DNA from: Verrucomicrobia bacterium Tous-C9LFEB
GTDB lineage: Bacteria > Acidobacteriota > Terriglobia > Terriglobales > Acidobacteriaceae
NCBI GenBank assembly: GCA_903970445.1
Contig: CAJCIP010000120.1
Location: 1-50,064 of the forward strand
Length of the DNA: 50,064 bases
Direction of reading: 5' to 3'
The notes beneath the pieces were generated by a model, which was not told the DNA's origin, ran no database searches, and saw only the letters and a list, made by a program, of their open reading frames with translations. Both the position numbers and the translations under genes were made by a program. Below are positions 31,045 through 45,065 of this stretch, one piece after another (within the stretch, counting starts at the first letter, position 1; each line of letters opens with the position of its first letter).

Positions 31045-33333
31045 ATGTACATTCGCCGCCCCAACTTCGTTCCGTTCATCGCCGTCTCACTGTTTCCTCT
31101 GCTCGCGCTCAGCGGTTGCCATCGCGACCCCAACGTGCGTAAGCAGAAATACCTGGAAAGCGGTGAGCGTTATGAGAAGAACGGCAAGCAGCGCGAAGCC
31201 GTCATCCAGTTTTCAAACGCAATCAAGATCGACCGTAACTTCGCCGAGGCTCACTACCAACTCGGCAAGCTGTATCTCGACATGGGAGCGCCACAGGCCG
31301 CATACCCTGAACTGCTGGCCGCAGTCGATCTCAAGCCCACGGATCTTGCTGCGCGGCTGACACTCGGGCAGCTGCAAATGGGCGGCGGCCTGCCGGACAA
31401 GGCAAAGGAGCAGGCGGAGGCGATTCTTGCAGCCCAGCCTAACAATGCCGATGGGCACGCTCTGCTGGCGCAGATCGCCGTGCGGCAGGGCCAGACGGAT
31501 GAGGCGCGTAAACAGATTCAGCAGGCGCTCGCCATTGACCCAAATCGGTCGGAATTCCATGTAACCCTTGCTGCGATTGAGGGTGGCGCGCAGAAAGACA
31601 TGCCCGCCGCGCAGGCGGAGTTGCAAAAGGCGATTTCGCTCGATTCCAAGAACGGCCAGGCGCACATGATGATGGCGGCTCTCCTTGAGCAGGACGGCAA
31701 GCCACAGGACGCAGTGCAGCAGGTCCAGGCCGCTGCGGACGCTCAGCCGAAGAGCCTCGTCTTCCGGGAAAACCTGGTGAACGCCTACATGCACGCGGGC
31801 AACAAGCAGGGCGCGGAGTTGGAGTTGCGCAAGATCGCCAACGACTTTCCCGACGACAAGACCGGCGCCACGCTCCTCAGTGCCTACTACCTGCAAACAG
31901 GGCAGATTGGGGCGGCTGACAGCGCTTATGAATCTCTGACAAGCGCACATCCAAAGAGCGTGCCGATCAAGGCCGCCTATGCCCGTATCCTTCTGCTGGA
32001 AGGACAGAAGGACAAGGCAACGAAGGTGGTCGCCGAACTTGTGAAGAGCAACCCGAACGATCCTGAAGTGGCCATCCTGAACGGGAGCCTTCTTGCCGTC
32101 AATGGCAAAGTGAACGAGGCAGCAGACGTCATCCACAAGGCTGTCAAGGATGCTCCTGACAATGCCGAGCTGCAAATGGCGCTCGGAAAAGTGAGCATGC
32201 AGCAGGGCGATTTCAATGCCGCGCAGACCGCCTATGGAGAAGCGTTGCGGCTCGCACCTCGCAATCTGGAAGCAGCAACCGGCGTAGCTACCATTGCCGA
32301 CCGCAAGCACGATTACGGCACCCTCTTGCAGGTTGCGGAGAAAACCATCGCGATCGCGCCCGGATTCCCGTCAGGGTACGTATGGCGCGCCACTGCGGAA
32401 GCAAATCAGAATGAGACAGCAAAGGCGGAACAGGACTTCCAGACGGCCCTGCAAAAAGATCCCAACAATCAGCCGGCGCTTGTCGAACTGGCACAGATTC
32501 GCTTAGCACAGAAACATGTGCCGGAGGCAACGAGCCTGCTGACGAAGGCTCTCCAGGCGAATCCGAACTCGGTCGAAGCTCTGCACGCTCTGGTAGCTAT
32601 CGATCTCAACGCCAAGCAGCCCACGGTGGCCGTCGACAGGATCAACCAGCAGATTGCGCGTTCGCCGAAAAACCCGATTCTTTACAGCATGCTTGCCGGG
32701 CTGAAGCTCAACCTCAAGGATTTTCCTGGAGCCAGGGACGCCGCCGGCAAAGCCCTGCAGCTCAACCCGGGCGACGAGAACGCGGTGCAGCAGCAGGCGG
32801 ACGCCGCCGTCGGCATGGGAGACGCCGGCGCGGCAGTGAACATCTGGCAGACCTGGGTCAACGCGCATCCGGCAGACGGGCAGGGGATCACGATGCTCGG
32901 GATGGTTCAGGAGTCGAAGGGCGATAAGAGCGCCGCGATGGAGTCGTACAAGAAGGCCCTGCAGCTGAAGCCCGATAATGCGATTGCCAACAACAATCTG
33001 GCGTTCTTGATGGTTGACAGCGGCCAGAGTGCCGACGACGCGCTCACGTATGCACAGGACGCTCGGCGCGCTCTTCCCAAGTCTCCGCAGACAGCGGACA
33101 CGTTGGCGTGGGTGTACTTCCACCTGGGCCGCTATGCCTCCGCCCGCGACCTGCTGGAGGATGCAGTCAAGGTCAATCCGAACGATGCCTCGGTTCAGTA
33201 CCATCTCGGCATGACCTACAGCCAGCTTGGGGACAAGGCGAATGCCTCGGCTCACCTCAAGAAGGCTGTTGCTATCGGGAACGGGTCGCCTGCGGCAAAG
33301 CAGGCTGGGGATGCACTCGCGAAGCTCATGTGA
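31045..33333 (+). CDS. PEP-CTERM-system TPR-repeat lipoprotein (PrsT-like)
   Basis: A 762-residue protein. Residues 1-25 are a lipoprotein signal with lipobox LALSGC (Cys25). The rest is an unbroken series of TPR units, about 18-20 by eye, for example HYQLGKLYLDMGAPQAAYPEL, ALLAQIAVRQGQTDEARKQI and VYFHLGRYASARDLLEDAV. Long TPR lipoproteins of this kind are a regular part of exosortase loci and are thought to take part in polysaccharide/protein assembly at the outer membrane. It lies 63 bases after epsI on the same strand and is likely co-transcribed with it. Confidence 0.88.
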   Translation: MYIRRPNFVPFIAVSLFPLLALSGCHRDPNVRKQKYLESGERYEKNGKQREAVIQFSNAIKIDRNFAEAHYQLGKLYLDMGAPQAAYPELLAAVDLKPTDLAARLTLGQLQMGGGLPDKAKEQAEAILAAQPNNADGHALLAQIAVRQGQTDEARKQIQQALAIDPNRSEFHVTLAAIEGGAQKDMPAAQAELQKAISLDSKNGQAHMMMAALLEQDGKPQDAVQQVQAAADAQPKSLVFRENLVNAYMHAGNKQGAELELRKIANDFPDDKTGATLLSAYYLQTGQIGAADSAYESLTSAHPKSVPIKAAYARILLLEGQKDKATKVVAELVKSNPNDPEVAILNGSLLAVNGKVNEAADVIHKAVKDAPDNAELQMALGKVSMQQGDFNAAQTAYGEALRLAPRNLEAATGVATIADRKHDYGTLLQVAEKTIAIAPGFPSGYVWRATAEANQNETAKAEQDFQTALQKDPNNQPALVELAQIRLAQKHVPEATSLLTKALQANPNSVEALHALVAIDLNAKQPTVAVDRINQQIARSPKNPILYSMLAGLKLNLKDFPGARDAAGKALQLNPGDENAVQQQADAAVGMGDAGAAVNIWQTWVNAHPADGQGITMLGMVQESKGDKSAAMESYKKALQLKPDNAIANNNLAFLMVDSGQSADDALTYAQDARRALPKSPQTADTLAWVYFHLGRYASARDLLEDAVKVNPNDASVQYHLGMTYSQLGDKANASAHLKKAVAIGNGSPAAKQAGDALAKLM

Positions 33334-33725
33334 GCGCAGGCTGGTTCTTGCGGGCCGGCGCGGCGGCACGGGCCGTTGCTGTGGTGGGCTTCTGCAAGGC
33401 GCTCGATGCACTTTTCTGATGAATCTGGGCTGGGAATCCCCCAGGGGTCTTTCGCCGTGCTACGGGTTCAGCGAGGCTTCGAAAAGCCCAGCTTTGCTCC
33501 GCATTCTGTCGTGATATGCCGTGCTTCTCCGGTGAGCTGTTTTGCTCACTGCCGTGTCACCTTCAGTAACTGCAGATCGTTACCACTTTGTCATATTAAA
33601 TCGAAAAACATCTTGTACTCTAAGGATGCACTCCAGATAACACCTTCGAGTCATTGCTGACGCGAAATGTGCACGGCCCCGACTGAGCGGACATCAACAG
33701 TGTCTGACTCTCCCCGGAATTGCTG
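33334..33725. other. Gene-free stretch before the PEP-CTERM gene promoter
   Basis: About 390 bases without a supported gene. It holds a weak hairpin (GTGAGC 33532-33537 pairing with GCTCAC 33544-33549) without a T run. Nothing else is recognised. Confidence 0.4.
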
Positions 33726-33741
33726 TGGTCTGAGAATTGCA
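33726..33741 (+). promoter_or_regulatory. Possible sigma-54 (-24/-12) promoter of the PEP-CTERM gene
   Basis: TGGTCTGAGAATTGCA at 33726-33741 matches the spacing of the sigma-54 consensus (TGGCACG, four bases, TTGCA): the TGG, the seventh-position G and the TTGCA are kept, three inner bases differ. It lies about 95 bases before the ATG of the PEP-CTERM gene. Sigma-54 control through PrsK/PrsR is known for other PEP-CTERM genes; those regulators are not in this window, so this is tentative. Confidence 0.35.
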
Positions 33742-33835
33742 AGATCGTGATTCAACTCACGGTCTCGTTATTTCGCAAGACCCGGGCCGAGTCGGAGTAT
33801 CGTCTGTTCGGATTTGTAATCTAAGGAGCCTTCTA

Positions 33836-34534
33836 ATGACGCGTTTCATGAAACTCTCAATCCTCGGTGCGGCACTCGCCCTACCTGCAACGTCGGCTTT
33901 CGCAACGTCGATTTCGATCGGCTTAGCAACAACTTCAACGGGTCCAGTTACTACAGTTGCGACCGATGGTGGAAGTGGAGTTGTGAACTTTTCCCAGAAT
34001 TCGTCTAGTTCAACTTACGCGACTTTCAACGGTTACAGCCTTTCCCTGAACGCGACCGGTTACCCGTTTACAATGCAGCAGGGAAACCTAATGACCAACG
34101 CGATTAGCGTGTCGTCATCGTCGGCAACTACGGGATCTATTTATGTCTATATCACCGAGACAGGTCTGACATCACCGACTGGGCAGACACCCTTTCTGAG
34201 TAGCTTCACAGAAAACAGCTTCGGGGGTGCAGGAGGCTCAGTTATGGAGACAACCCTCTACAGCGCAATGAATAACGCGTACTCAGGCTCGCAGCTTGGT
34301 ACTGCAACATTTACTGCCATTGGTACATCCACCTCCACTGCCACTGCGAACCTGGGAAATGGTACGTACTCTGTTACCGAGAAGTACGCGATTACACTCA
34401 ATCCGAATGCGAGCGCGAATAGCACAATCAATCTCTCACCCGCAGCAACACCTGAACCATCCAGCCTTGCTCTGCTTGGCACTGGTCTTCTGGGTGTAGC
34501 TGGAGTTGTTCGCCGGAAACTCGTCAAAGCATAA
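33836..34534 (+). CDS. PEP-CTERM sorting-signal protein (exosortase substrate)
   Basis: A 232-residue exported protein. ATG 33836 has AAGGAG eight bases upstream and opens a signal peptide (residues 1-24, ending SAFATS). The body is very rich in Ser, Thr, Asn and Gly and has no Cys, as is usual for the heavily modified PEP-CTERM proteins. The C-terminus shows the complete sorting signal: Pro-Glu-Pro at 206-208, a hydrophobic helix SLALLGTGLLGVAGVV, and the basic end RRKLVKA. The exosortase at 29384 is the expected processing enzyme. The gene has its own likely promoter and a strong terminator. Function of the mature protein is unknown. Confidence 0.93.
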   Translation: MTRFMKLSILGAALALPATSAFATSISIGLATTSTGPVTTVATDGGSGVVNFSQNSSSSTYATFNGYSLSLNATGYPFTMQQGNLMTNAISVSSSSATTGSIYVYITETGLTSPTGQTPFLSSFTENSFGGAGGSVMETTLYSAMNNAYSGSQLGTATFTAIGTSTSTATANLGNGTYSVTEKYAITLNPNASANSTINLSPAATPEPSSLALLGTGLLGVAGVVRRKLVKA

Positions 34535-34549
34535 CTACTTCATTTGGCA

Positions 34550-34580
34550 GAAGCCCCGGCATTCGCCGGGGCTTCTTTTG
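34550..34580 (+). terminator. Rho-independent terminator after the PEP-CTERM gene
   Basis: A perfect 11-bp stem GAAGCCCCGGC (34550-34560), loop ATTC, GCCGGGGCTTC (34565-34575), followed directly by TTTTG. It lies 16 bases after the stop codon. Confidence 0.92.
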
Positions 34581-35334
34581 CGAGAGCCTAATTGTCTGAT
34601 CCTCATCTAGAGATCTGCTGCAGATGCCGAAATACGCTCGCGCTCGGCGATCCACGTTGCAGAGCAGTGCGTTTGCAGAGCGATTCTTGCTCTAGACGCC
34701 AGGAAAAACGCCCAACTCGGCCCCTCGTTACGCAGATCCCTCCGCCTTACTAGCGACAAAAACAGAAGCGGTCACAAGGGCCTCAAAGTGCTTGTCACAG
34801 CACAGCTTATCCTGTCTAGTGCTTGGAGTATGACGCTGCCCAGAGCATTCTTCACAAAACGCGATCTCAGGTGCGAGAGCGAAGATGCTGAAAGAACGTA
34901 TCTTCGACCAAGCGCAACATGCTAAGGTGCAACTGTGTCAAACCGACCATGGTGGCGCGTCGTCATGGTGCAACTTGGTCTACTGTGCGGCATCGCGCAA
35001 GTGTTTGGGTTATATCAAACGACTGGGATTTCTCGCCATTCCAAAAGGAATGATGTCGCTTGGTGTCCATGTTCAAAACTGGAAACCACTGCGCAGCGAC
35101 GCATCGGGTTCATAGCACTTCAGGGAGCATTCGGCAATCAGATCGAGCAAAGCCTGATTTCGCCATGTGAACCGCTACTAAGGCAGGAGCACAGGAGAGA
35201 ATTCGGTACCGAAGCCTCTTATCGCTGGTCGGAATCGAAGGTCAGCAATCGGCTCGTAATATTCCGACAACATTCGTCAGAGACCGATCGCCATTAGAGA
35301 CGAAGCAAGCGTGATTTTCAACCGCTCAGCTGGA
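34581..35334. other. Gene-free stretch between the exosortase locus and the RiPP cluster
   Basis: About 750 bases of lower G+C than the neighbouring genes. Open frames here (for example at 34885-35115 and 34935-35297) have no ribosome site, no recognisable motif and atypical composition. I also looked on the minus strand for further copies of the short precursor genes and found none. It may be the border of an acquired region. Confidence 0.4.
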
Positions 35335-35484
35335 TTAGGAGCAGTTATTGTGGGTATCGTTGAAATTGCTATTGCCGCCGGTTTGGTGTTCGGTAACGGC
35401 TGCGCAGGATGAAATGTTAATCCCAGGCCTCTGCCACATCTCTCTGGTTATTTCTCGTACCTGATCGTTCGGCAAAGTCTTCAC
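35335..35484 (-). CDS. Putative RiPP (lasso-type) precursor peptide A2, 49 residues
   Basis: A short gene found by reading the gap. GTG 35484 has GGAGG four bases upstream (35489-35493); the stop is TAA at 35335-35337. The product has 49 residues: a leader with EMWQRPGINISSCAAVTEHQ and a last 14-residue stretch GGNSNFNDTHNNCS. It aligns with the peptide at 37881-38039 at 14 positions from the Trp on (Trp-Gln-x-Pro, Ser-Ser-Cys-Ala-x-Val-Thr, Gly, Ser, Asp, Cys-Ser). Leader motif W-x-x-P resembles the Y-x-x-P recognition motif of lasso leaders. If the core starts at Gly36, Asp43 is core position 8, right for a Gly1-Asp8 ring; starting at Gly37 would place Thr at -2 and make a 7-ring. The gene stands alone on its strand, divergent from the sulfotransferase at 35819. 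Confidence 0.72.
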   Translation of the reverse strand: MKTLPNDQVREITREMWQRPGINISSCAAVTEHQTGGNSNFNDTHNNCS

Positions 35485-35818
35485 AAATCCTCCAACATGA
35501 GCTTTTCTAAATCTACTTTGCTAAGTATAGCTCCAAATGTCGGGCGAGCAGCTGGTCTATCTGATTTCATTCTGTTCCACATCGTTAGCGGTGCAAAAAG
35601 GCATCGTAAAGAGATCACATAATCGCACTTTGGAAGAAAAACGTCACGATTGGCGCGACGGCTGGCAACGCATCCCGATGCCGTCGCGTTGTGGACACAA
35701 TGATGAAAGATCCCAAATACTTCCCCGATCTTCCAACGGTCCACACCCAGCTTGATCGGCCGCCTGCCAGCTGGAGATGCTCGCGTTTCACCCGGCAGTG
35801 GAGCCGACATCTATCGAA
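35485..35818. other. Divergent intergenic stretch between precursor A2 and sulfotransferase
   Basis: About 330 bases that should hold promoters for the minus-strand precursor and the plus-strand sulfotransferase-pqqD pair. A minus-strand open frame ending at 35481 runs into the precursor start, but it shows no family features. I see no clear promoter or operator. Confidence 0.35.
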
Positions 35819-36469
35819 ATGACCCCCAGACATTTTCTTCATGTCAGCAAATCGGGCGGTTCCGCTCTGAAGCATGCCTTGGGGCCGTATGCAAGAAGTT
35901 TGAATTTATTACTGCACCCGCACAAGGTGCGGCTGCGGGACATACCCGACGGACAACAAGCCTTCTTCTTCGTGCGTTCCCCCTTGGAACGCTTCGTAAG
36001 CGGGTTTCTGAGTCGGCAACGCCAGGGCAGGCCGCGATACTACTACCCTTGGACCGCAGAGGAACATGCCGCCTTTACGCGCTTTCCTAGTGTGAACGAT
36101 CTGGCGGAAGCACTTTCAGCAACCGGTCCTCAAGGCGCCCATGCCAGACAAGCTATGGAGCAAATTAGGCATTTAGCGCGCCCGCTCACTTTGTGGCTTG
36201 AAGATGAGCAATATCTCCATCTCAGGCGTAGCGATATCCTTTTTGTCGGCTTCCAAGAACGATTAGAAAATGACTTCTTCAGACTGCGAGAGCTTCTCGG
36301 CCTTCCCGAGGCAGCAGTATTACCGACAGATGACGTCGTCGCTCACCGCGCGCCTTCAAATTCGAATCGGCTCCTCTCGAAGCACGCCGAGGCCAATGTA
36401 CATAGGTGGTATGAGGCAGATTTCCATCTCTACGATTACTGTAGAGAGATGTTTCCAGACTCTGAATAG
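35819..36469 (+). CDS. Sulfotransferase (Sulfotransfer_2-like) of the RiPP cluster
   Basis: A protein of 216 residues from ATG 35819 (an in-frame ATG at 35777 would add 14 residues; neither has a well-placed ribosome site, the later start begins right at the family's first strand). The 5'-phosphosulfate loop is FLHVSKSGGSAL and the 3'-phosphate site is AFFFVRSPLERFVSGFLSR, both as in membrane-type carbohydrate/peptide sulfotransferases that use PAPS. It precedes the PqqD gene by 21 bases on the same strand. In this cluster it could sulfate the lasso peptide or a sugar on it; the acceptor is not known. Confidence 0.75.
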   Translation: MTPRHFLHVSKSGGSALKHALGPYARSLNLLLHPHKVRLRDIPDGQQAFFFVRSPLERFVSGFLSRQRQGRPRYYYPWTAEEHAAFTRFPSVNDLAEALSATGPQGAHARQAMEQIRHLARPLTLWLEDEQYLHLRRSDILFVGFQERLENDFFRLRELLGLPEAAVLPTDDVVAHRAPSNSNRLLSKHAEANVHRWYEADFHLYDYCREMFPDSE

Positions 36470-36490
36470 CGTGTTCGAAGGATTGTTAGC

Positions 36491-36775
36491 TTGAAAGCTG
36501 AATTGGATTCTAAGATCGTTCTGCGACGATCACCTGACGTGCTTGAAACAACCGTGAATGACGAGCCCGTGCTTCTGCATTCCACTCGCTGGCAGTACCT
36601 GCATTTCACCGGCAGCGGGGCAGCCATCTGGCAAGCTCTCGCAGAGCCGATGAGTTTTGAAGCGCTGATCGCTGCGTTGCGCATGCGCTTCGATATCGAC
36701 GAAGACACGTGCCGTCGAGAAACGGAGCAGTTCCTTCAGAAGCTGCTCGACGAAGAATTTGTGATTGCAACCTAG
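36491..36775 (+). CDS. PqqD-like RiPP recognition element (lasso B1)
   Basis: A 94-residue protein of the PqqD family, the usual stand-alone size. It starts with TTG 36491 (AGGA eight bases upstream). The wHTH-type fold pattern is seen: beta strands VLLHSTRWQYLHFT, then GSGAAIWQAL, a helix SFEALIAALRMRFDI and the C-terminal helix EQFLQKLLDEEFVI. PqqD-like proteins bind leader peptides and deliver them to the modifying enzymes. In lasso clusters this is the B1 part, acting with a B2 protease (42662) and a cyclase (39938). It overlaps by 4 bases the 3' end of the convergent GT17 gene. Confidence 0.85.
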   Translation: MKAELDSKIVLRRSPDVLETTVNDEPVLLHSTRWQYLHFTGSGAAIWQALAEPMSFEALIAALRMRFDIDEDTCRRETEQFLQKLLDEEFVIAT

Positions 36776-37854
36776 TGTGCTGTTGGCTGGCCCATGCTTT
36801 TGCGCCTCTGCAGCCAGGCGCATGCGGCGCGGACGCAGTCAACAAGCAGAAGAGGAAGCAGCAGCGGCGTAAGTCGCTCGAAGTGGCGATCCACGAAAGG
36901 GACACAGACCTGCGGCATTCGCGGTGAGTGCCTCAGCCACGCCCACGTCCTTACCACGCGCCGTTTGCGCGAGCTTGTGACAGACGCGCCCTCACCACCC
37001 GATGTCCCCGCGCGTAACCTCTGCAAATCTTCCGGGAGCTGCCCAACCGGACGCTCCGCGTACCACCAGCCGCGGGCATGAACTCCGGCGTCGCGTGTTC
37101 GTTGTAGATGAATGGAAGCGAGCGACCGCTCGTCTGCGAATTCCGCGTGCGAGAAGTGGCTGAGTTTGGTCTGAAGGTCTTTCGAGCTTGCAATCGAGCT
37201 CAGGTGCCGGCCCGCATCTGGAAGGCGCGGCGCGTATTGGTTCTCGCGGCGGAGCGCGTGCGGTGTTCGCGGCGGTAAGGCACACTCCTGATCACCTCGG
37301 ATGTCCTTGAACCGCACCGCTACGCCCGGCATGCACCACCAGGTCGGCGAGAGATGATCCCAGGATTCTGGATGTAGATGAGGCACAGCGAAGGGGAAAG
37401 GATCGTCCGTGTTCGCGCAGCAGGCGGAGCGGGGCGCAAGCGTGTCGAAGCGTCCATAGTGCCGGGTCATCAGCAATCGATGCGGCCGGGAGAGTCCGTC
37501 GGCGCGAAGCCGCTGTAGCACGCCCCGGCTGGGAACCTCATCCGCGTCCAGGATGAGTACTACGTCCTCTGGTTCTGCGTCGTGAAGCCCGAGCTGAATA
37601 GCATTGCGCTGAAATGCCTCCCGCGCCCAGGTGCTTTCGCCCGGCAATCTCGGTAGAGCGACGTGGCGTAGCTTCGGCATTGCCCAGGCAAACCGCTCAC
37701 GATGCTGATGAAAGAGAAGAGGCTTGGGCTGGCCTTGGAACGTCTGCGCGGCTTCCACGAGCACCAGCACATCTACAAGTTCGTAGATTTCAGCTAAGCG
37801 GTGCTCCAACAAGTCGAATTCATTGTCGAAGATGAAGGTGTCATAGATGCGCAT
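36772..37854 (-). CDS. Glycosyltransferase family 17-like protein
   Basis: A 360-residue protein with the GT17 (MGAT3-like) start MRIYDTFIFDNEFDLLEHRL, then ELVDVLVLVEAAQTFQGQPKPL, and the metal-site block VILDADEVPSRGVL (Asp-x-Asp). These features match family 17 N-acetylglucosaminyltransferases, which occur in bacteria mostly as uncharacterised proteins. It follows the precursor A1 stop by 26 bases on the same strand, so it is most likely in the same transcript and may glycosylate the peptide. The C-terminal third is Arg-rich and less family-like, ending in a hydrophobic stretch LTPLLLPLLLVDCV. Confidence 0.75.
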   Translation of the reverse strand: MRIYDTFIFDNEFDLLEHRLAEIYELVDVLVLVEAAQTFQGQPKPLLFHQHRERFAWAMPKLRHVALPRLPGESTWAREAFQRNAIQLGLHDAEPEDVVLILDADEVPSRGVLQRLRADGLSRPHRLLMTRHYGRFDTLAPRSACCANTDDPFPFAVPHLHPESWDHLSPTWWCMPGVAVRFKDIRGDQECALPPRTPHALRRENQYAPRLPDAGRHLSSIASSKDLQTKLSHFSHAEFADERSLASIHLQRTRDAGVHARGWWYAERPVGQLPEDLQRLRAGTSGGEGASVTSSRKRRVVRTWAWLRHSPRMPQVCVPFVDRHFERLTPLLLPLLLVDCVRAACAWLQRRKSMGQPTAH

Positions 37855-37880
37855 AGGCGATCAATGACAGTATGGCTTAA

Positions 37881-38039
37881 CTAGGAACAGCTATACATGG
37901 CGTCGCTAGGTCCGCTAAAGGTACCGGAGATATTGTTCTGCGTGACTGTAGCGCACGAAGACACTACCGCATCAGGGGTTTGCCAAACTTCTGGACGTTG
38001 GACTGCTAACTGCTCGGCTGACAACGAAGATTCCTGCAT
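37881..38039 (-). CDS. Putative RiPP (lasso-type) precursor peptide A1, 52 residues
   Basis: A short gene found by reading the gap between the sulfotransferase and GT17 genes. ATG 38039 has GGAG seven bases upstream (part of GTGGAGAAAACTC); the stop is TAG at 37881-37883. The product has 52 residues: MQESSLSAEQ at the start, RPEVWQTPDAVVSSCATVTQ in the second half of the leader, and a 14-residue end GTFSGPSDAMYSCS. Gly39 as core position 1 puts Asp46 at position 8, which fits a Gly1-Asp8 macrolactam ring with a six-residue tail AMYSCS. The pattern W-Q-x-P ... S-S-C-A-x-V-T ... G-x6-D-x4-C-S is shared with the peptide at 35335-35484. Thr is not at -2 as in most lasso leaders (Ile-Ser precedes the Gly). 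The gene lies in the minus-strand operon with the cyclase and kinase. Confidence 0.78.
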   Translation of the reverse strand: MQESSLSAEQLAVQRPEVWQTPDAVVSSCATVTQNNISGTFSGPSDAMYSCS

Positions 38040-38193
38040 GAGTTTTCTCCACGTAACCTTGTGTGCGAACCAAGGTCTGTGGGCAATGTATCGTCAGGCG
38101 GGCCACTGATTGGCATAAGTGATATCAAACAGACATACAACTTAAGGGATGCTCCCTCCATCGCGGAATCCACTTTGGTGGGCACGGTGTATT

Positions 38194-38213
38194 GTCACGG
38201 CTGAAGCCGTGAC
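38194..38213. repeat. REP-like palindrome at the end of a sulfotransferase gene
   Basis: A perfect 8-bp inverted repeat, GTCACGGC-TGAA-GCCGTGAC. It covers the last codons and the stop codon (38195-38197) of the minus-strand sulfotransferase gene. Neither side has a T run. Form and size are those of a REP-type palindrome; a role as transcript-end hairpin is possible. Confidence 0.6.
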
Positions 38214-39109
38214 CTACCGTTCACTTGATCAGAGTGACGATTCAGAGCTCGTTCGGCAGACGTTCCGTCTTCCCCGTACCCTAGCATCTTCATCACAGCC
38301 TCGTTCTCGCGGACCAGTGTCGCGCGTAGCTCTTCGGTCAGCTTATCCTTCCACGTCATAGAGCCGCCCTGCCGGAAAAAGCTTAGGGAAGTAGTTGGCC
38401 GCTCGCGAAATCCTCCTCGCACTTCAGAGGCCTTGAGACGGTTGATATGAGCGGCTTCGACAGCTTGCTGAAGACGATCATCCGTCGGCAGACTGAGCGC
38501 TTCTGCAATCCTTCGAAAGGCACCTAGTTCATCACGTTGCATGTCCTCGTATCGCATGCAGAGCACACTGTACGGTATATCCGGATTCAACCAGCTTTCC
38601 GCATTCTGGCTCCAGCTCCCATCGGTTTCTTGCAAGGAAAGCGGAAGCATCGACTCCGCCCGGAACCAGTTTGGACGTTCGCCGGACATGATGCGGACCG
38701 TTTCCTCAATCGAAAATCCCAGATGATTGCTGAAGGAAGCGGCCACATCGAAGGGATGGCGCACGAGATAAATCACCTGGCGGACTGCTTGCGGCGGGAA
38801 CACCCATTCACCACGAGGCGTTCTACGTGCTCGATCATGAACCTTGATGAAGACGAGGTTTCTTGCGTCTGCCGCAACATCCTCATACACCGAAGGGAGT
38901 GTCAGCTCGATCTCTTCCGGAGTCATGTCCGCGGCAGAAGCTGCCGCGTAGTAATCGAAGACACGCCGGCGTGAGTGACCGTACAGGCCTATGTCGATGC
39001 GATTGATGTCGCCCGCATGTTCCGGTGTGAGCAGTCCCTGGATGACCGCACGTACCCACGTGTTTCCCGATTTCGGGTAGCTGGCAATCAGGACGAGAGG
39101 GGCTTCCAT
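38195..39109 (-). CDS. Sulfotransferase (Sulfotransfer_1-like) of the RiPP cluster
   Basis: A 304-residue cytoplasmic sulfotransferase. The PAPS 5'-phosphosulfate loop is IASYPKSGNTWVRAVI (residues 8-23) and the 3'-phosphate site is VIYLVRHPFDVAASF; VLCMRYEDM and the late GSMTWKDKLTEELRA block are further family landmarks (Lys in the Gly-x-x-x-x-Trp-Lys region). Its start overlaps the end of the HPr-kinase-like gene by 22 bases. Precursor A1 follows 155 bases downstream. The last residues (NGRSRLQP) are encoded by the REP-like palindrome and its flank. Acceptor unknown; Tyr or Ser/Thr of the peptide is a fair guess. Confidence 0.88.
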   Translation of the reverse strand: MEAPLVLIASYPKSGNTWVRAVIQGLLTPEHAGDINRIDIGLYGHSRRRVFDYYAAASAADMTPEEIELTLPSVYEDVAADARNLVFIKVHDRARRTPRGEWVFPPQAVRQVIYLVRHPFDVAASFSNHLGFSIEETVRIMSGERPNWFRAESMLPLSLQETDGSWSQNAESWLNPDIPYSVLCMRYEDMQRDELGAFRRIAEALSLPTDDRLQQAVEAAHINRLKASEVRGGFRERPTTSLSFFRQGGSMTWKDKLTEELRATLVRENEAVMKMLGYGEDGTSAERALNRHSDQVNGRSRLQP

Positions 39110-39936
39110 TGCGCCACCTCCTCCAAAGCATTACCTAATTCTTCGACGGTCGAGCGGCGACCGCCGCCCAGGATTCCGGCGGTGATCTGGCCCGCGATTG
39201 TGCCGACAAGCTGCAGATGCTGCTTCAGCATGCCCAGAGGCGCCACTTGCCGTTGCCGAAACGTGTGTCGTGTCAGCAGAGCCATGCGTTCAGGAATGCT
39301 CGGCAACTCCACCAACCCCGGCTCGGACAACGTCAGCTCGACCACCGTTCCGAGACGCAGAGGCTCGGTGTCTTGCGTGACTGGGTAGAAAAACTTCTGC
39401 AATCCGGTCCTGACGGTCTGTAGCTTTTCTGTTGGAAGCTCAAGGCGTTCGCATGCATCCTGCCACAGCTTGATGCCTCGATGGCTCGGCCAGGCGAACG
39501 GCTTTCCGTCCCGCAGGCTGACCCGCGTGCTGTCGTCGGCAAGCACCATCCACCCGCGACGATGCATTTCGGCGGCGAGGGTCGATTTACCTGCACCAGA
39601 AAATCCGCACACAGCGATACATGCCAAGCCGTCAGGCGGCAGCAAGCAGGAGGCATGCAGCGGCAGCTCGCCACGCTGATGCAGGATGGCTGCCCGAGCT
39701 GCGCCATGGAGATACATATCCACTGCGCCCGGGTCGGCGCCCACGACTGGCGCTACACGCACCGTTGTGCCATCTTCTGCAAGAAACGCGCCCACTTCAG
39801 GAACGCGCAGCAGCATTGCACCGGGGCGAATCTGCATGTACTGCCCAACCTGTTCGGCTCCCTCCAGTTGGTCTGGAAGGGTATCGACTTCCAGCACCTG
39901 CGCGTCGGGCACGCCAGCGAGCTCTCGTGCGATCAA
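39088..39936 (-). CDS. HPr kinase/phosphorylase-like kinase of the RiPP cluster
   Basis: A 282-residue protein with the HprK-type P-loop CGFSGAGKSTL (residues 110-120), the preceding LPLHASCLL segment with its conserved His, and the downstream LADDST motif (132-137) that binds metal and phosphate. It lacks the N-terminal HprK domain found in true HPr kinases. Stand-alone HprK-like kinases are found in lasso clusters, where those studied (paeninodin type) phosphorylate the side chain of a C-terminal Ser of the precursor. Both precursors here end in Ser. TTG 39936 directly follows the cyclase stop; the start is not secure. Confidence 0.82.
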   Translation of the reverse strand: MIARELAGVPDAQVLEVDTLPDQLEGAEQVGQYMQIRPGAMLLRVPEVGAFLAEDGTTVRVAPVVGADPGAVDMYLHGAARAAILHQRGELPLHASCLLPPDGLACIAVCGFSGAGKSTLAAEMHRRGWMVLADDSTRVSLRDGKPFAWPSHRGIKLWQDACERLELPTEKLQTVRTGLQKFFYPVTQDTEPLRLGTVVELTLSEPGLVELPSIPERMALLTRHTFRQRQVAPLGMLKQHLQLVGTIAGQITAGILGGGRRSTVEELGNALEEVAQWKPLSS

Positions 39937-39937
39937 A

Positions 39938-41797
39938 TCAGCAGCCCCATTCCCGTATCAGCGATCCGGCGTCGATCAGACGCTCGATCGAGTATGCTTC
40001 AGCCAGATTGCCATTCCCTGCTGCGAGCTTCTCTAAGGTTTGCGATGCGGCAGTCAGGTCGAAAGCCTCCGCGCACGCTGGTGAATCATTTAACGCGTCG
40101 AGCGCGCTCCGGTATCGGTCCGCGTGCTTCTGAATGATACCCGCAGACTCCGGTGACTGCGCTCCACGGTTTCTGCGCAGCCGGATAGCATCCGGTACCA
40201 ATCCCGCGCCCATCTCTCGAGCTAACCCACGGCTTCGCCCACCCGCCAAGAACGCTTCGACGGGAAACGAGAGAAGGAGCTCGATGAACCTTCTATCGCT
40301 GAATGGGTCACGTCCTTCCACGCCGCTGGTGTGCATCGTGTCTGCACCACAAAAGCGGCTGCTCATCGTCGCAAAGGCGATCAGATTCTGTTTGCCTCGC
40401 ATGTCGTCCACGGACTTATTCAGCAGATGAGCTTGTTCTTCCCGGAAAGCTGGGCTGAGGAGAATTGCCCCGGCCCGCTCTCTCCTGCGATGTGGATTCC
40501 GGCGCGTCTGATAGCGAGACCGCAACTCTAGTGCAAGCGCCTTCCAGGCGGGGACGCCTCCACCCAGCTTGCTGTCTCGCTGCGCAAACTTCATCGCTTC
40601 CAACCATCGCCCGGAAGCAAAGAGAATGGAAAACACGCTCCGTCCTTCGAAGCTAGCGGTGGCATTGCCTCGGCCGCCGGCGAGCAAAACGCGCTTTCCA
40701 TCTGCTGCCGTCAATTCCGCCATGCGCAAGCCCCAGAGTTGATTTGAGGTGTTTCTGACCGCAGTACAAGACGTCTCATGGATCTCCGGCATCACGTCGA
40801 GATAGCACCGTCCGCCCGGGCGAATGAGCACGAGGTCCATATTGGCGTTGCGCTCGACCAGGGCGCGGGCCAGGTGTGACTCATCGTGATCCCAGTTGCG
40901 CTTCTCTTCTCCCTTGAGGCCTTCTTCCGGAACAGAGGTGTAGGCCGTCAGGTGTTGCCCGCGTCCGTGAAGTTGCCGAGCTGCAACGGCTGCCATCAGC
41001 GTAGAGTCCAGTCCGCCACTCAAGGTAGTGTTCACGCCAGTTACGCACGTGAGCGTGCTGCCTACCGCGCGCTCAAAAACTTCTGACGCAAGCTGCACAT
41101 ACTCTTGCTCCTTGCTAAAGCGAAGCTCCGGGACTGCTCCAGGCGTCCACCAACGTGTGAGATAAGCTGCTCTGCCTGGTGCGTAGTGAAGAAGGTGGCC
41201 TCCTGGCAGCAGGTGAACGTCCTCCACAGGGCTGGCGCCGCTTATCATTTTCGGTGCGACAAGCAGCGGCAACGCGACGAGGTTAGGCTTCCGTTGAATC
41301 GCAGGATTCGCCAGCATCCCAATCACCTGACTCGAGACGATCAGCGCCCCGGCCCGCTCGGCGTAATACACAGTTTTCGCGCCGACATGATTGTCGGAGA
41401 TGAAGACTTCGCCTGACTGCCGATGAAGGGCGGCGAAGGCGTAATCGCCGTAGACCTTTCGTGGCAAGTCCTCGCCGAAGCGAACGTACGCATGAAACAA
41501 AAGCTCGGCATCGGACATGGCTGCGACCTGGTTTCCGCCAAAAGCGAGCGAGTCTCCGAGCTCGCCGCGGTCGTAAACATAGCCATCCGCGACGAAACAA
41601 AGCTGCTCATTAACGTACGGTTGTGTATCGAAGCTATCCTCTGCTTGTATGCCCCGCGCAAGTCCGGCGGCGGCCAAACCTTTTGCTTCGTCGTACCAGA
41701 TCCCGAGCTTCCCAGACGCGCCGAGGAGCGCTGACGCCATGGCTTGGATCGCGTGGCGGAGGTCGTCTCTCTGAGAACCAGCGATGATTACAAACAT
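39938..41797 (-). CDS. Asparagine-synthetase-like lasso peptide cyclase
   Basis: A 619-residue two-domain protein. The N-terminal part (about 1-215) has the class II glutamine amidotransferase fold (YGDYAFAALHRQSGEVFISDN) but residue 2 is Phe and there is no catalytic Cys, so it cannot use glutamine. The C-terminal domain has the ATP pyrophosphatase loop LSGGLDST (259-266) and DHDESHLARALVERN. This is the make-up of lasso C proteins, which activate an Asp or Glu side chain as AMP ester and close the ring with the core's N-terminus. The start overlaps the upstream sulfotransferase by 10 bases, and the kinase gene follows without gap. Ordinary AsnB is unlikely given the lost Cys and the neighbours. 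Confidence 0.87.
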   Translation of the reverse strand: MFVIIAGSQRDDLRHAIQAMASALLGASGKLGIWYDEAKGLAAAGLARGIQAEDSFDTQPYVNEQLCFVADGYVYDRGELGDSLAFGGNQVAAMSDAELLFHAYVRFGEDLPRKVYGDYAFAALHRQSGEVFISDNHVGAKTVYYAERAGALIVSSQVIGMLANPAIQRKPNLVALPLLVAPKMISGASPVEDVHLLPGGHLLHYAPGRAAYLTRWWTPGAVPELRFSKEQEYVQLASEVFERAVGSTLTCVTGVNTTLSGGLDSTLMAAVAARQLHGRGQHLTAYTSVPEEGLKGEEKRNWDHDESHLARALVERNANMDLVLIRPGGRCYLDVMPEIHETSCTAVRNTSNQLWGLRMAELTAADGKRVLLAGGRGNATASFEGRSVFSILFASGRWLEAMKFAQRDSKLGGGVPAWKALALELRSRYQTRRNPHRRRERAGAILLSPAFREEQAHLLNKSVDDMRGKQNLIAFATMSSRFCGADTMHTSGVEGRDPFSDRRFIELLLSFPVEAFLAGGRSRGLAREMGAGLVPDAIRLRRNRGAQSPESAGIIQKHADRYRSALDALNDSPACAEAFDLTAASQTLEKLAAGNGNLAEAYSIERLIDAGSLIREWGC

Positions 41798-42609
41798 GCG
41801 TCACCCTGAACCGCCTCAGCGGAGGAAACTTTACGCGGCCAGCTTATTCCTGTCAGCTCAAATAAGTCCTGATTCGGTGTCTCATACAGGGCGTCGAACC
41901 GAGCACGCATGAAATGCGGTAGAGGAGATTGCGTTCGAGCGTTGTGAGGAAGACCGCCAGGTAGCGTCATTCGTTCTAACTCAAGGAATGCGCAAACTTG
42001 GTCAAACACCTTCTGCGGCTCGGCGAACAGATCTTCACTGCGCAGGATCAGGAATCGATCGCGCGGAACATACTGCCACCACTGCCGCAGCTGGTCCGCG
42101 TAGAAGCCGCGCGCTGTATAGCTATACAGCATGTGACCCGTCGCCGCAGGATCAAGTTCAGGACAGGCTGATTCGAACGTGCTTCGCTTCCTTTCCTGAT
42201 CTACGGCGTCTCGAAACCCGAGGTGCTCGCAACCCAGCGTGAGCATGTGGTGGTAGTGTGACCACGCGCGGGCGCCAGATTCTCGCAGCAAGACGATGCA
42301 CTTTGGTGCGCCAAGCACATCGTGCAACCGCTTCGCCGCTTCAGGATGGAAGAGATAGTAAGGCGTGGAGTCCAGCACGATCGGACGCTTCCTGAATAAG
42401 GCCCGATACATCCACCTTGGCCAGCGCAACGGCATCTGGCTGCGGTAGTACTCCAGACCCTTGTTCCAGTGCAACGTGAAGAAGTGCAACTCTTTGTGTT
42501 TGGTTGCCGCGACTTCCGCATGCTGCTGCAACGCCGCATGTAGAAAGGTCGTTCCAGAACGCATTGCGCCAAGGATGACCACATCAGGAAGTGGGCGTAA
42601 CAGGTTCAT
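41788..42609 (-). CDS. Sulfotransferase (heparan-sulfate-sulfotransferase-like) of the RiPP cluster
   Basis: A 273-residue sulfotransferase, first gene of the minus-strand RiPP operon. The 5'-phosphosulfate loop is VVILGAMRSGTTFLHAAL and it is followed by KHKELHFFTLHW, a pair typical of N-deacetylase/N-sulfotransferase-like bacterial enzymes. The 3'-phosphate site is CIVLLRESGARAWSHYHHML: the usual Arg-Asn/Asp-Pro is Arg-Glu-Ser here, a deviation. It is not closely similar to the other two sulfotransferases of the cluster. It diverges from the B2 gene with 52 bases between starts. Confidence 0.88.
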   Translation of the reverse strand: MNLLRPLPDVVILGAMRSGTTFLHAALQQHAEVAATKHKELHFFTLHWNKGLEYYRSQMPLRWPRWMYRALFRKRPIVLDSTPYYLFHPEAAKRLHDVLGAPKCIVLLRESGARAWSHYHHMLTLGCEHLGFRDAVDQERKRSTFESACPELDPAATGHMLYSYTARGFYADQLRQWWQYVPRDRFLILRSEDLFAEPQKVFDQVCAFLELERMTLPGGLPHNARTQSPLPHFMRARFDALYETPNQDLFELTGISWPRKVSSAEAVQGDACL

Positions 42610-42661
42610 GACTGGCGTTGCGCGGTTACGATCAAGGGGAGCCGTCTATTAGGATCGTCAC

Positions 42662-43075
42662 TTGAGCAGCAAATTGCAAACCTGGCGCAGAATGCCCATC
42701 CGAGGCCGGCTTGCCGTGCTTGAATCTGCCTTCTTGCTCACAGCTTCTTGGTTAGCGGTGCGGTTCTTCTTTCCAAAGATAGGGTCCTGGGCCACTCGTC
42801 CGGCGCCAAGTCACAGCTTGATGCCCCCGCCACACATCCAGGATGAAGTGCGTCGCGGCATCAGCATTGCAGCACGAAATCTGCCTTGGAATTGCGTTTG
42901 CCTGCCGCGCGCCATTGCCGGCAAACTCCTGCTCGCGCGCCGCGGCTATCGTTCAACGATCCGGATTGGAGTGCGCTTGAGCGACGGCGCCTTATCGGCG
43001 CACGCATGGCTTGAGATTGGCCAAATTACCTTGCTCGGTGGACGAGGGTCTAAGGAAATGTCGGTCCTGGTCTGA
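42662..43075 (+). CDS. Lasso peptide B2-type leader protease (transglutaminase-like)
   Basis: A 137-residue protein from TTG 42662 (AGGA eight bases upstream; ATG 42692 would shorten it by ten residues). Residues 10-35 (RMPIRGRLAVLESAFLLTA) resemble the usual B2 N-terminal helix, then a transglutaminase-like core: the likely catalytic Cys80 in NCVCLPRAIAGKLLLARRGY and His114 in SAHAWLEIG. I see no Asp after the His in the remaining 23 residues, so the third residue of the triad is uncertain (Glu118 is a candidate). B2 cuts the leader from the precursor with the help of B1 (PqqD-like). Diverges from the minus-strand operon. Confidence 0.8.
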   Translation: MSSKLQTWRRMPIRGRLAVLESAFLLTASWLAVRFFFPKIGSWATRPAPSHSLMPPPHIQDEVRRGISIAARNLPWNCVCLPRAIAGKLLLARRGYRSTIRIGVRLSDGALSAHAWLEIGQITLLGGRGSKEMSVLV

Positions 43076-43098
43076 GCTGATCTGAGGTCTGGAAAAGA

Positions 43099-43173
43099 TG
43101 GTGGCCAGAGACGGGATCGAACCGCCGACGCCGGCCTTTTCAGGGCCGCGCTCTACCACTGAGCTATCTGGCC
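43099..43173 (-). tRNA. tRNA-Phe (GAA)
   Basis: Read on the minus strand, a full cloverleaf forms: acceptor GGCCAGA/TCTGGCC, D arm GCTC...GAGC, anticodon stem CGGCC/GGCCG with loop CTGAAAA (anticodon GAA), T arm GGCGG TTCGATC CCGTC, discriminator A and an encoded CCA (75 bases in all). Its 3' end faces the RiPP cluster, whose last gene stops 23 bases away. Confidence 0.96.
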
Positions 43174-43451
43174 TTGGCAATGAAAAGAAACACGCGGGCC
43201 GCCAAGATCGCCGTATGCTGCGTTTCGAAAAACCTGCCTGCGTGGGAGGATTGACCGGTCAGCGTCTTGCACAGCTGCACGCAGTCATCGAGAACGTCGA
43301 TGTCAGTATAGCAATCGTGCCGCCGTCGCGCCACCCGCTAAGGGCGAGTCCGTTATCCTGAAGCAGCTCTTCCAGGCTGCATGAATGTGATTTCCGGTTC
43401 TTTTGAGGTGATGCCATCCCTGACTTCCTCTTCCGCAATTGCAAAGCTGCT

Positions 43452-45065
43452 TTGCTTTCGGCCAGCCTAAGCGTAGGTGCGTTTGGCCCAGCGCAACTCG
43501 CGGGGCAATCGGCAATATACCCGCCCTCCGCGCCGCTTTCCTCCGTCGAGCTAAAAGCGAGCAAAGCGTTTGAAGCGGCGAAGAAGCAAGGCGCGCCGGA
43601 ACTCTATGCCTTCCTGAAGACAATGCCCAAAGGCGCCGACCTGCATATGCATCTGGATGGAGCGATCTACGCTGAGACGTTTATCGCGGATGCAGTGAAG
43701 CAGGGAATGTGCGTGGCGAATGTGGAGCCCGCAACACCAGCAGTCCCTGTCGCGCACGGCGCGCTGCATTTCGTGGCTCCCTTGCAAGGCAAAGACATTG
43801 TCTGCCCGGTCGGTGCGGTGCCGATTACAGATGCGCTCAAGAATCAGAGCCTGTACGACGATCTCATCGACAGCTTCTCCATGCGGGCCTATGTGCCGAC
43901 ACCAGGCATCAATGGGCACGACCAGTTCTTCTCAACCTTTGCGCGGTTCAGCGGATTGAAAGGGTCGAAGGGCGAGTGGCTGGATGAAGTAGCAACACGC
44001 GCTGCTGCGCAGAATGAGCAATATCTGGAGATCATGAGCACGCCAAGCTCGGCCCATGCAGTTGCGGCTGCGGAAAAGATCGGCCTGCCGGCTGGAATCA
44101 ACGATTCCAATTACAAAGCTGCTCTCGCGAAAGTACGTGACGAGCTATTGGCGAATGGTTTGCGTGAAGATGTCGCACTGGATTCTTCGGAGTTTGCGGA
44201 GATTGGAGCTTCGCGGAATCAGCTTGAACACTGCAGTCAGACTGCCCTGCCGGCATGTCACATTTCCGTTCACTGGCTGTACCAGGTGCTGCGTGGCTAT
44301 CCACCGCAGCATGTATTCGCGCAAACGCTGCTCGCGTTTGAGGTTGCCACCGCGAATCCGGACGTCGTTGGCCTGAACTTCGTCATGCCGGAAGACGGCC
44401 GTGTTTCCATGCAGGATTATCACCTGCAGATGCTGATGCTGGACTACCTGCACGGCGTGTATCCGAAAGTGCATACCTCGCTTCACGCGGGCGAGCTTGC
44501 GCCTGGCATGGTGCCTCCCGCCGGCCTGAGCTCCCACATTCGCGAAGCGATCGACCTTGGCCATGCAGAGCGCATTGGACATGGTGTGGATGTGCTCTAC
44601 GAAGATCGCCCCACGGATCTGCTCAAGGAAATGGCGCAGAAGCATGTCATGGTCGAGGTCAACCTCACGTCGAACGACGTGATTCTCGGCGTGAGAGGAA
44701 CTGACAGCCCGTTCGCAGCCTACCGCGCCGCGCATGTGCCGACCGCGCTCTCTACAGATGACGAAGGTGTCAGTCGCATCGATCTGACACACGAGTACGT
44801 GAAAGCTGCGTTGGAACAGAACGTCAACTACGCTGGCTTGAAAGCTATGGCTCGGACTTCACTCGAGCATGCCTTTCTGCACGGTGAAAGTCTGTGGAAC
44901 GCGCCGGACGATTTTTCTCATCGGAAGACGGCCTGCGTTGAAGCCATTCTGCCCGAAAGTAAGCCGTCAGAGCGTTGTTCTGAACTCCTAAAGTCCAATG
45001 AGCGCGCGCAGTTGCAGTGGGAGCTGGAGCGGCGCTTCGCGGCCTTTGAAGCAGATTCTCACTAA
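43452..45065 (+). CDS. Adenosine deaminase family protein, secreted type, 5' end probably frameshifted
   Basis: The open part is 537 residues from TTG 43452. Adenosine/AMP deaminase motifs are complete: KGADLHMHLDGAIYAE (metal His65 and His67), SLHAGEL, ERIGHGVDVLYED and ALSTDDEGVS (metal Asp). It hydrolyses adenosine or a related purine to inosine; the ADGF-like insert between residues 95 and 160 is larger than in cytosolic enzymes. The TTG start leaves a signal peptide without its basic front. An ATG at 43411 after GAGG opens MPSLTSSSAIAKLL in another frame; adding one base near 43444-43451 would join it to LLSASLSVGAF and give a normal signal peptide. A one-base loss (real or from sequencing) is likely. 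Confidence 0.85.
   Translation: MLSASLSVGAFGPAQLAGQSAIYPPSAPLSSVELKASKAFEAAKKQGAPELYAFLKTMPKGADLHMHLDGAIYAETFIADAVKQGMCVANVEPATPAVPVAHGALHFVAPLQGKDIVCPVGAVPITDALKNQSLYDDLIDSFSMRAYVPTPGINGHDQFFSTFARFSGLKGSKGEWLDEVATRAAAQNEQYLEIMSTPSSAHAVAAAEKIGLPAGINDSNYKAALAKVRDELLANGLREDVALDSSEFAEIGASRNQLEHCSQTALPACHISVHWLYQVLRGYPPQHVFAQTLLAFEVATANPDVVGLNFVMPEDGRVSMQDYHLQMLMLDYLHGVYPKVHTSLHAGELAPGMVPPAGLSSHIREAIDLGHAERIGHGVDVLYEDRPTDLLKEMAQKHVMVEVNLTSNDVILGVRGTDSPFAAYRAAHVPTALSTDDEGVSRIDLTHEYVKAALEQNVNYAGLKAMARTSLEHAFLHGESLWNAPDDFSHRKTACVEAILPESKPSERCSELLKSNERAQLQWELERRFAAFEADSH

What the first reader, a model, noticed from the sequence alone, without database searches (positions are those of the whole stretch)
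35335..43075. Lasso-type RiPP cluster with kinase, three sulfotransferases and a GT17 glycosyltransferase
Seen: a PqqD-like protein, a transglutaminase-like B2 protease, an Asn-synthetase-like protein without the glutaminase Cys, an HprK-like kinase, three sulfotransferases, a GT17-like enzyme and two short precursor genes in 7.7 kb. Known: B1 + B2 + C define lasso clusters and HprK-like kinases modify some lasso peptides. Inference: the cluster makes a lasso peptide carrying several late modifications (phosphate, sulfate, perhaps sugar). I know of no characterised lasso peptide with this set. No ABC transporter or isopeptidase gene is visible in the window.
Basis: partly seen in the sequence, partly recalled or inferred. 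Interest (0 to 1): 0.93.

Follow-up and report, generated by a model that had tools for sequence, protein, structure and literature searches.

The report
Sulfated, sugar-bearing lasso peptide gene cluster
This DNA carries two small peptide-precursor genes beside genes whose enzymes are predicted to cut, knot, phosphorylate, add sugar to and sulfate the peptide; the same sugar-adding gene, and in some cases the sulfate-adding genes, lie with look-alike precursors in distantly related bacteria, so they likely work together to make an undescribed kind of lasso peptide.

Summary
Window 35335-43075 holds two related precursor ORFs (A1, A2), a PqqD-like B1, a B2 above its NCBIfam cut-off, a lasso-type cyclase C without the glutaminase Cys, an HprK-like kinase K, an intact GT17 glycosyltransferase and three sulfotransferases (STa, STb, STc). 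A Sphingomonadales MAG (L053) has counterparts of all but B2; Terriglobus saanensis and a relative have K, C, B2, B1, GT17 and a GT2 but no sulfotransferase hit; three Tistrella-type loci have GT17, K, STb and precursors (two also STc) with no C, B1 or B2 nearby. All 7 fetched loci with the long GT17 encode a W-x-x-P ORF ending Cys-(x)-Ser; 0 of 40 loci with C and K but no GT17 do. STa and STc resemble heparan-sulfate sulfotransferases, STb glycopeptide ones. Best reading: a lasso peptide with a phosphorylated C-terminal Ser and a sulfated sugar on its tail, a new variant of lasso clusters; my searches found no described GT17 or sulfotransferase acting on a lasso peptide. Product, threading, sugar site and sulfate positions are untested. 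The Tistrella loci show precursors and tailoring genes apart from a cyclase, which weakens the cis argument.

The parts
35335..35484 (-). precursor A1 (49 aa, GTG start, GGAGG upstream); predicted core GNSNFNDTHNNCS (Gly1-Asp7 ring, Thr at -2) or GGNSNFNDTHNNCS (ring of 8)
   Evidence: W..P leader motif, ends Cys-Ser; core start inferred
35777..36469 (+). STa, Sulfotransfer_2-type sulfotransferase
   Evidence: PF03567 7.9e-8; model pLDDT 94, best PDB fold heparan sulfate 2-O-sulfotransferase 4ndz, prob 1.00, 13% identity; 47% identical relative in L053
36491..36775 (+). B1, PqqD-like leader-binding protein
   Evidence: PF05402 8e-15; homologues in L034, L035, L053
36772..37854 (-). GT17-family glycosyltransferase, long type (360 aa)
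   Evidence: PF04724 8.2e-25 over part of the profile; D103, D105, E106 invariant in 48 rows; GT-A-like model pLDDT 90
37881..38039 (-). precursor A2 (52 aa); predicted core GTFSGPSDAMYSCS (Gly1-Asp8 ring, Ile at -2)
   Evidence: W..P leader motif, ends Cys-Ser; core start inferred
38195..39109 (-). STb, Sulfotransfer_1 sulfotransferase
   Evidence: PF00685 9.2e-23; nearest solved relatives Teg12, StaL, Teg14; relatives in L053, L157, L169, L170 and in GT17-free loci L066, L075, L155
39088..39936 (-). K, HprK-like kinase
   Evidence: His, Walker-A Lys and Asp-Asp conserved in five aligned kinases
39938..41797 (-). C, lasso-type macrolactam synthetase
   Evidence: no Cys2, SGGLDS present
41788..42609 (-). 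STc, Sulfotransfer_1/3 sulfotransferase
   Evidence: PF00685 9e-18; of 14 PDB matches the best is a chain named only 'Sulfotransferase' (3rnl), then 8 rows of heparan sulfate 3-O-sulfotransferases and 5 of N-sulfotransferases; relatives in L053, L157, L170
42662..43075 (+). B2, transglutaminase-like leader protease (TTG start)
   Evidence: NF033537 2.9e-21, above cut-off; PF13471 2.3e-20
43099..43173 (-). tRNA-Phe gene bordering the cluster (boundary mark, not part of the pathway)

Best explanation
The window encodes two precursor peptides with B1, B2 and C homologues that would cut and knot them into lasso peptides, together with a kinase, a GT17 glycosyltransferase and three sulfotransferases that are predicted to phosphorylate the C-terminal Ser and put a sulfated sugar on the tail. 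Proposed order, all inferred: B1 binds the W-x-x-P leader; K phosphorylates the C-terminal Ser of the linear precursor; the GT17 enzyme transfers a sugar to the tail, most likely to the conserved Cys or otherwise to the Ser (or its phosphate); STa and STc, which resemble heparan-sulfate sulfotransferases, sulfate that sugar; STb, which resembles glycopeptide-antibiotic sulfotransferases, sulfates the peptide or the sugar; B2 removes the leader; C joins Gly1 to Asp7 or Asp8 around the tail. Shown here: the genes, their conserved motifs, and the association of GT17 with the tail Cys and, in five of seven loci, with sulfotransferases, across two phyla.
For: Window: A1, A2, B1, B2, C, K, GT17, STa-c open and adjacent. 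L053, a Sphingomonadales MAG, has STa 47%, GT17 49%, B1 41%, C 38%, K 43%, STb 41%, STc 38% in one run, with two precursors between STb and STc. L034 and L035 have K-C-B2, B1, GT17 and a precursor, plus a GT2. Tistrella pTM1 (L157) and two close relatives (L169, L170) have GT17, K, STb and precursors, STc in two of the three. ORFs with W..P ending C(x)S: 7 of 7 long-GT17 loci against 0 of 40 GT17-free loci with C and K (Fisher 1.6e-8, or 8e-7 with the three Tistrella-type loci as one). STc in 0 of those 40, STa 0 of 40, STb 3 of 40. Long GT17 in 3 of 398 family genomes; the same three have the three best C matches. K keeps His-Lys-Asp-Asp (motif named in PMC9266682, passages). A full-length APS-kinase match (a PAPS source) is in the genome.
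Against: The three Tistrella-type loci have no C, B1 or B2 beside the precursors, so lasso formation there would need genes in trans. L053 has no B2 match on its contig. L034 and L035 have GT17 with no sulfotransferase hit. C scores below the NCBIfam lasso cut-off, and in the tree the AsnB branch itself lies among a minority of lasso rows, so lasso cyclases are not one group against AsnB. The spacing from leader Trp to Gly1 in the window is three residues longer than in L035 and in four of five Tistrella-type precursors; the core start is not fixed for L053. The second L053 precursor ends Cys-Thr-Asn. The motif was written after seeing four of the seven loci, and the other three are one lineage. 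No mass, structure or enzyme assay exists.
Confidence: 0.62

Rival explanations
1. The sugar is placed on the phosphorylated C-terminal Ser, as proposed for pseudomycoidin, and the conserved Cys has another role such as forming a disulfide or acting as a steric plug.
For: Pseudomycoidin: PsmN adds one or two hexoses to the phospho-Ser (PMC9266682, PMC8498205, passages). K and a C-terminal Ser are present in the window, and L034 carries an NTP_transf_5 protein.
Against: A C-terminal Ser also occurs without GT17: 27 of 40 GT17-free loci have a W..P ORF ending in Ser (ORFs not vetted one by one), while W..P ORFs ending C(x)S were seen only with GT17. No NTP_transf_5 match among the cluster proteins.
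Confidence: 0.28
2. GT17 and the sulfotransferases belong to the neighbouring exopolysaccharide/exosortase genes and sulfate a capsule; they lie by the lasso genes by chance.
For: A Wzz/Wzy/Bac_transf-type polysaccharide cluster and an exosortase lie at about 8-34 kb of the window.
Against: The same set sits with K, C, B1 and precursors in a Sphingomonadales MAG and with K and precursors on a Tistrella plasmid; no polysaccharide cluster was seen among the flanking L150 ORFs that I scanned or is annotated in L157. Long GT17s form a branch apart from six short ones, of which L152 lies among genes that read, by eye, as glycosyltransferase and nucleotide-sugar genes.
Confidence: 0.06
3. The peptides are tailored but not threaded: C makes an unthreaded macrolactam or another amide, so this is a lasso-like but different peptide class.
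For: C is below the NCBIfam cut-off; the Tistrella-type loci have no cyclase beside the precursors; the tail after the supposed ring Asp is only 5-7 residues in the 11 precursors.
Against: C nests among cyclases of loci with B1/B2; 4 of the 5 Tistrella-type precursors have Gly at Trp+17 and Asp at ring position 7 or 8, the spacing of the BsfA leader (Tyr(-17), Pro(-14) in PMC10368454, passages).
Confidence: 0.15
4. The cluster is silent or decaying in this strain.
For: Present in 1 of 28 genomes of the genus by GT17.
Against: Every gene is open, key residues are kept, and A1 and A2 keep Shine-Dalgarno-like sequences.
Confidence: 0.05

Closest known systems
Phosphorylated lasso peptides (paeninodin; ThcoK/SyanK systems; BsfK of Bradymonas)
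   Same: HprK-like K with His-Lys-Asp-Asp, separate B1 and B2, C, W/Y-x-x-P leader, C-terminal Ser (not in the BsfA system, which ends in Asp and is phosphorylated on Ser3)
   Different: no GT17, no tail Cys-Ser, no trio of sulfotransferases described; one putative sulfotransferase gene is noted in some Firmicute clusters (PMC8498205, passages) without a described product
Pseudomycoidin (phosphoglycosylated lasso)
   Same: phosphate plus sugar on the lasso tail
   Different: sugar attributed to the nucleotidyltransferase PsmN, no match to which was found in the window cluster; no sulfotransferase described
Ser-glycosylated lasso peptide (Sun et al. 2025; seen only as a reference in PMC13352647, paper not held)
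   Same: glycosylated lasso peptide
   Different: I could not read which glycosyltransferase family is used; no sulfation in the title
Glycopeptide sulfotransferases Teg12, StaL, Teg14
   Same: nearest solved relatives of STb; that they sulfate antibiotic peptides is recalled
   Different: substrates are nonribosomal (recalled)
Heparan sulfate 3-O- and 2-O-sulfotransferases
   Same: solved relatives of STc by sequence and nearest fold to STa
   Different: act on polysaccharide (recalled); 13% identity in the STa fold match
Glycocins (SunS, ThuS)
   Same: would share a sugar on a peptide Cys if the novel reading holds
   Different: SunS-type enzymes are not GT17 (recalled); SunS and ThuS appear only among many GT-A matches of the model

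Membership tests
lasso peptide gene cluster | precursor with Tyr/Trp-x-x-Pro leader and short core | tested here: met
   A1 and A2; same form in L034, L035, L157, L169, L170 and the first L053 precursor
lasso peptide gene cluster | B1 (PqqD-like) | tested here: met
   PF05402 8e-15
lasso peptide gene cluster | B2 transglutaminase-like protease | tested here: met
   NF033537 above cut-off
lasso peptide gene cluster | C: AsnB-like synthetase lacking Cys2, grouping with lasso cyclases | tested here: met
   MFVI start; tree. NCBIfam lasso model is its best hit but below cut-off
lasso peptide gene cluster | Gly/Ala/Ser/Cys1 and Asp/Glu at 7-9; Thr, Ile or Val at -2 | tested here: inconclusive
   A1 G1-D7 with Thr(-2), A2 G1-D8 with Ile(-2) fit if the core starts at Trp+20, but the cut site is inferred; L053 does not fix a start
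lasso peptide gene cluster | threaded product | not testable with these tools
   needs MS or NMR
phosphorylated lasso peptide | HprK-like kinase with His-Lys-Asp-Asp and a C-terminal Ser acceptor | tested here: met
   alignment; A1 and A2 end in Ser; motif from PMC9266682 (passages). HprK models are matched below cut-off; activity not tested
pseudomycoidin-type phosphoglycosylated lasso | PsmN-like nucleotidyltransferase in the cluster | tested here: not met
   no NTP_transf_5 match among the cluster proteins; that PsmN is of this family is recalled
GT17 glycosyltransferase | PF04724 match with an acidic DxD motif | tested here: met
   (part of the profile); D103, D105, E106 invariant
PAPS sulfotransferases | family match and conserved 5' and 3' phosphosulfate-binding motifs | tested here: met
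   motifs conserved in the alignments; motif names recalled
sulfated or S-glycosylated lasso peptide | modified product | not testable with these tools
   no product data

The most novel reading that the evidence does not exclude
The long GT17 enzymes are S-glycosyltransferases dedicated to lasso precursors: they put a sugar on the conserved tail Cys, and heparan-sulfate-like sulfotransferases then sulfate that sugar, giving S-linked sulfo-glyco-phospho lasso peptides. The tailoring genes and precursors form a mobile module that can work with cyclase and protease supplied from elsewhere in the genome, as in Tistrella.
Probability: 0.3. Interest if true: 0.87.

Novelty: new variant of a known kind. 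Interest (0 to 1): 0.72.

Why it matters
If true, it would add sulfation, and possibly Cys-linked sugar, to lasso peptides; it would give bacterial GT17 enzymes a peptide substrate (my one search on bacterial GT17, listed 7 papers, none of which by title deals with peptides); and it would make glycosaminoglycan-like sulfation chemistry available on a stable ribosomal scaffold. The Cys-to-GT17 correlation makes the acceptor site testable with single-residue variants.
Full report
What is there. Window 35335-43075 lies between a PEP-CTERM protein gene (33737-34534) and a tRNA-Phe (43099-43173). It holds A1, STa, B1, GT17, A2, STb, K, C, STc and B2. All these frames are open. C begins MFVI and so lacks the AsnB Cys2; the PP-loop SGGLDS is kept. 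B2 passes its NCBIfam cut-off. C does not pass the lasso-cyclase cut-off (154 of 525 bits), but that model is still its best NCBIfam match. K is only weakly HprK-like by profile (its one Pfam match above a cut-off is AAA_33) and keeps His, Walker-A Lys and Asp-Asp across five kinases; PMC9266682 (passages) names this His-Lys-Asp-Asp motif for lasso kinases. The GT17 profile match covers positions 74-205 of 348; the rest of the protein is conserved in relatives.

Precursors. A1 and A2 are alike (BLOSUM62 local score 71, reached by 0 of 2000 shuffles). Both have Trp-x-x-Pro, Thr 14 residues after the Trp, an Asp followed by six residues, and a Cys-Ser end. Read with the core at Trp+20, A1 is GNSNFNDTHNNCS (ring of 7, Thr at -2) and A2 GTFSGPSDAMYSCS (ring of 8, Ile at -2). 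Ile or Val at -2 is reported for Acidobacteriaceae and Sphingomonadales lasso precursors (PMC10368454; I read part 1 of 6 and found passages). The core start is inferred. In that paper the Bradymonas kinase acts on Ser3, not on the last residue, so the terminal Ser is a prediction here.

Relatives with the same set. C homologues were sought in 398 genomes of the family (75 with E at most 1e-20) and in GTDB contigs (80 loci kept of 84). Three neighbourhood types carry the long GT17. (i) L053, a Sphingomonadales MAG: STa, GT17, B1, C, K, STb, two precursors, STc; no B2 match on that contig, while the genome has three B2 matches on other contigs. (iii) Tistrella mobilis pTM1 (L157) and two unnamed close relatives (L169, L170; their best K and STb copies 88-92% identical to L157): GT17, K, STb, one or two precursors and a nucleotidyltransferase, with STc in L157 and L170, but no C, B1 or B2 nearby. 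pTM1 has no B2 match at all; a lone B2 lies on pTM2 near a repA gene, and another lasso C+K+B1 locus lies about 31 kb away on pTM1.

The key association. By one rule (ORF of 30-150 aa with W..P and 20-34 residues to its end; window part 33001-45000), 7 of 7 long-GT17 loci encode an ORF ending Cys-(x)-Ser, and 0 of 40 GT17-free loci with C and K hits do, although 27 of those 40 encode a W..P ORF ending in Ser (ORFs not vetted singly; of the 40, B1 is found in 18 and B2 in 21 at tblastn 1e-6, so not every one is a proven lasso cluster). Fisher p is 1.6e-8, or 8e-7 with the Tistrella-type loci counted once. Limits: I wrote the motif after seeing the window, L034, L035 and L053; those four share a C clade, so they are not independent; the Tistrella-type loci came later through GT17 alone, but are one lineage. 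In L053 the matching ORF is 137 aa as read from its first start; its true start is probably further in. The second L053 precursor ends Cys-Thr-Asn and was not counted as a match. In the same 40 loci STa and STc are absent and STb occurs in 3 (L066, L075, L155); among the 7, STb occurs in 5 (window, L053, L157, L169, L170), STc in 4 (window, L053, L157, L170), STa in 2 (window, L053). So the terminal Ser goes with the kinase, while the tail Cys and STc go with GT17. That is why I favour the Cys as the sugar site, with the phospho-Ser as the main rival.

How rare. Long GT17 by genome sample (samples overlap): 3 of 398 in the family, the three with the best C matches; 1 of 28 in the genus; 2 of 297 in the phylum; 1 of 396 in the order of the L053 genome, plus one short GT17; 2 of 230 in the class of the L075 genome (Alphaproteobacteria), plus four short; 0 of 185 in the class of the L054 genome (Gammaproteobacteria), plus one short. 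In the protein database 183 relatives reach E 1e-10, 120 of them listed; five of the eleven nearest C homologues (P0002-P0012) have a longest-contig length that also appears in the GT17 list (15041, 53561, 10548, 8104, 4769), which suggests shared contigs. Four of the 34 other STa relatives do so too. The long GT17s form a branch apart from the six short ones (support 100).

What the tailoring enzymes resemble. STb: Teg12, StaL and Teg14. STc: a chain named only 'Sulfotransferase' first, then heparan sulfate 3-O-sulfotransferases. STa: no PDB sequence relative; its model (pLDDT 94) best matches heparan sulfate 2-O-sulfotransferase at 13% identity. GT17: GT-A-like model with no informative nearest fold. 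The own genome holds a full-length APS-kinase match.

C phylogeny. In a tree of 73 rows, 8 AsnB-type proteins with Cys2 fall in one branch (support 100) with three rows that have no B gene hit, and window C falls in a 13-row branch (support 95) with L034, L035, L053, L054 and eight database homologues, on the side of the tree that holds 29 of the 36 lasso rows. The other 7 lasso rows lie on the side that also holds the AsnB branch, so lasso cyclases here are not one clade against AsnB (quick method, several long branches).

Literature. Searches: lasso peptide with sulfotransferase (15 papers), lasso with kinase/glycosyltransferase/tailoring, lasso with sulfation (33, 9 papers), lasso with Acidobacteria and others, RiPP with sulfotransferase and lasso, GT17 with bacteria, lasso with S-glycosyl, Terriglobus, Tistrella. 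From listings and the passages read, the only lasso-linked sulfotransferase statement I saw is in PMC8498205: a putative sulfotransferase gene at the start of some Firmicute clusters. The other papers of those listings were not opened except PMC9266682, PMC13352647, PMC12325987, PMC10368454 and PMC9064862. PMC13352647 (passages) lists Ser glycosylation; the terms for sulfation hit only a reference on a sulfatase. PMC9064862 (passages) shows other acidobacterial lasso clusters. Subscription papers and preprints were mostly not searchable, so absence here is weak.

Verdict. A real cluster, best read as a lasso pathway with an undescribed sugar-plus-sulfate tailoring set; mechanism inferred, product unseen.

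Noticed in passing
window 8000-34534: Exopolysaccharide-type genes (Wzy, Wzz, export protein, bacterial sugar transferase, glycosyltransferases) followed by an exosortase, DUF3485, TPR and PEP-CTERM protein genes.
   Followed up: partly
L160 8926-9450 (NC_017966.1, Tistrella pTM2): A lone lasso B2 gene near repA and partition genes with no other lasso gene annotated around it.
   Followed up: no
L157 16901-17491; L169; L170: A small nucleotidyltransferase-family gene is kept at 91-94% identity beside the Tistrella-type module.
   Followed up: no
L034 6798-7778 and L035 6910-7926: A GT2-type glycosyltransferase next to the precursor in both loci that lack sulfotransferase hits, as if sugar extension replaced sulfation.
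   Followed up: partly
L034 14015-15202: An NTP_transf_5 protein (1.5e-55) beside the Terriglobus cluster.
   Followed up: no
L053/L150 8668-15774: NRPS genes (A-T, then C-A-T-TE) and a P450 directly after STc in the Sphingomonadales MAG.
   Followed up: no
L066, L075, L155: GT17-free loci with C, kinase and an STb-like sulfotransferase (Sphingomonas, Paramagnetospirillum, the L053 genome): possible peptide-only sulfation.
   Followed up: partly
window 4685-7699 (-): A 1004-aa ORF with no Pfam match at 1e-4.
   Followed up: no
L170 8457-8925: Fragments matching STb and STc between the two precursors, perhaps remains of a duplicated unit.
   Followed up: no
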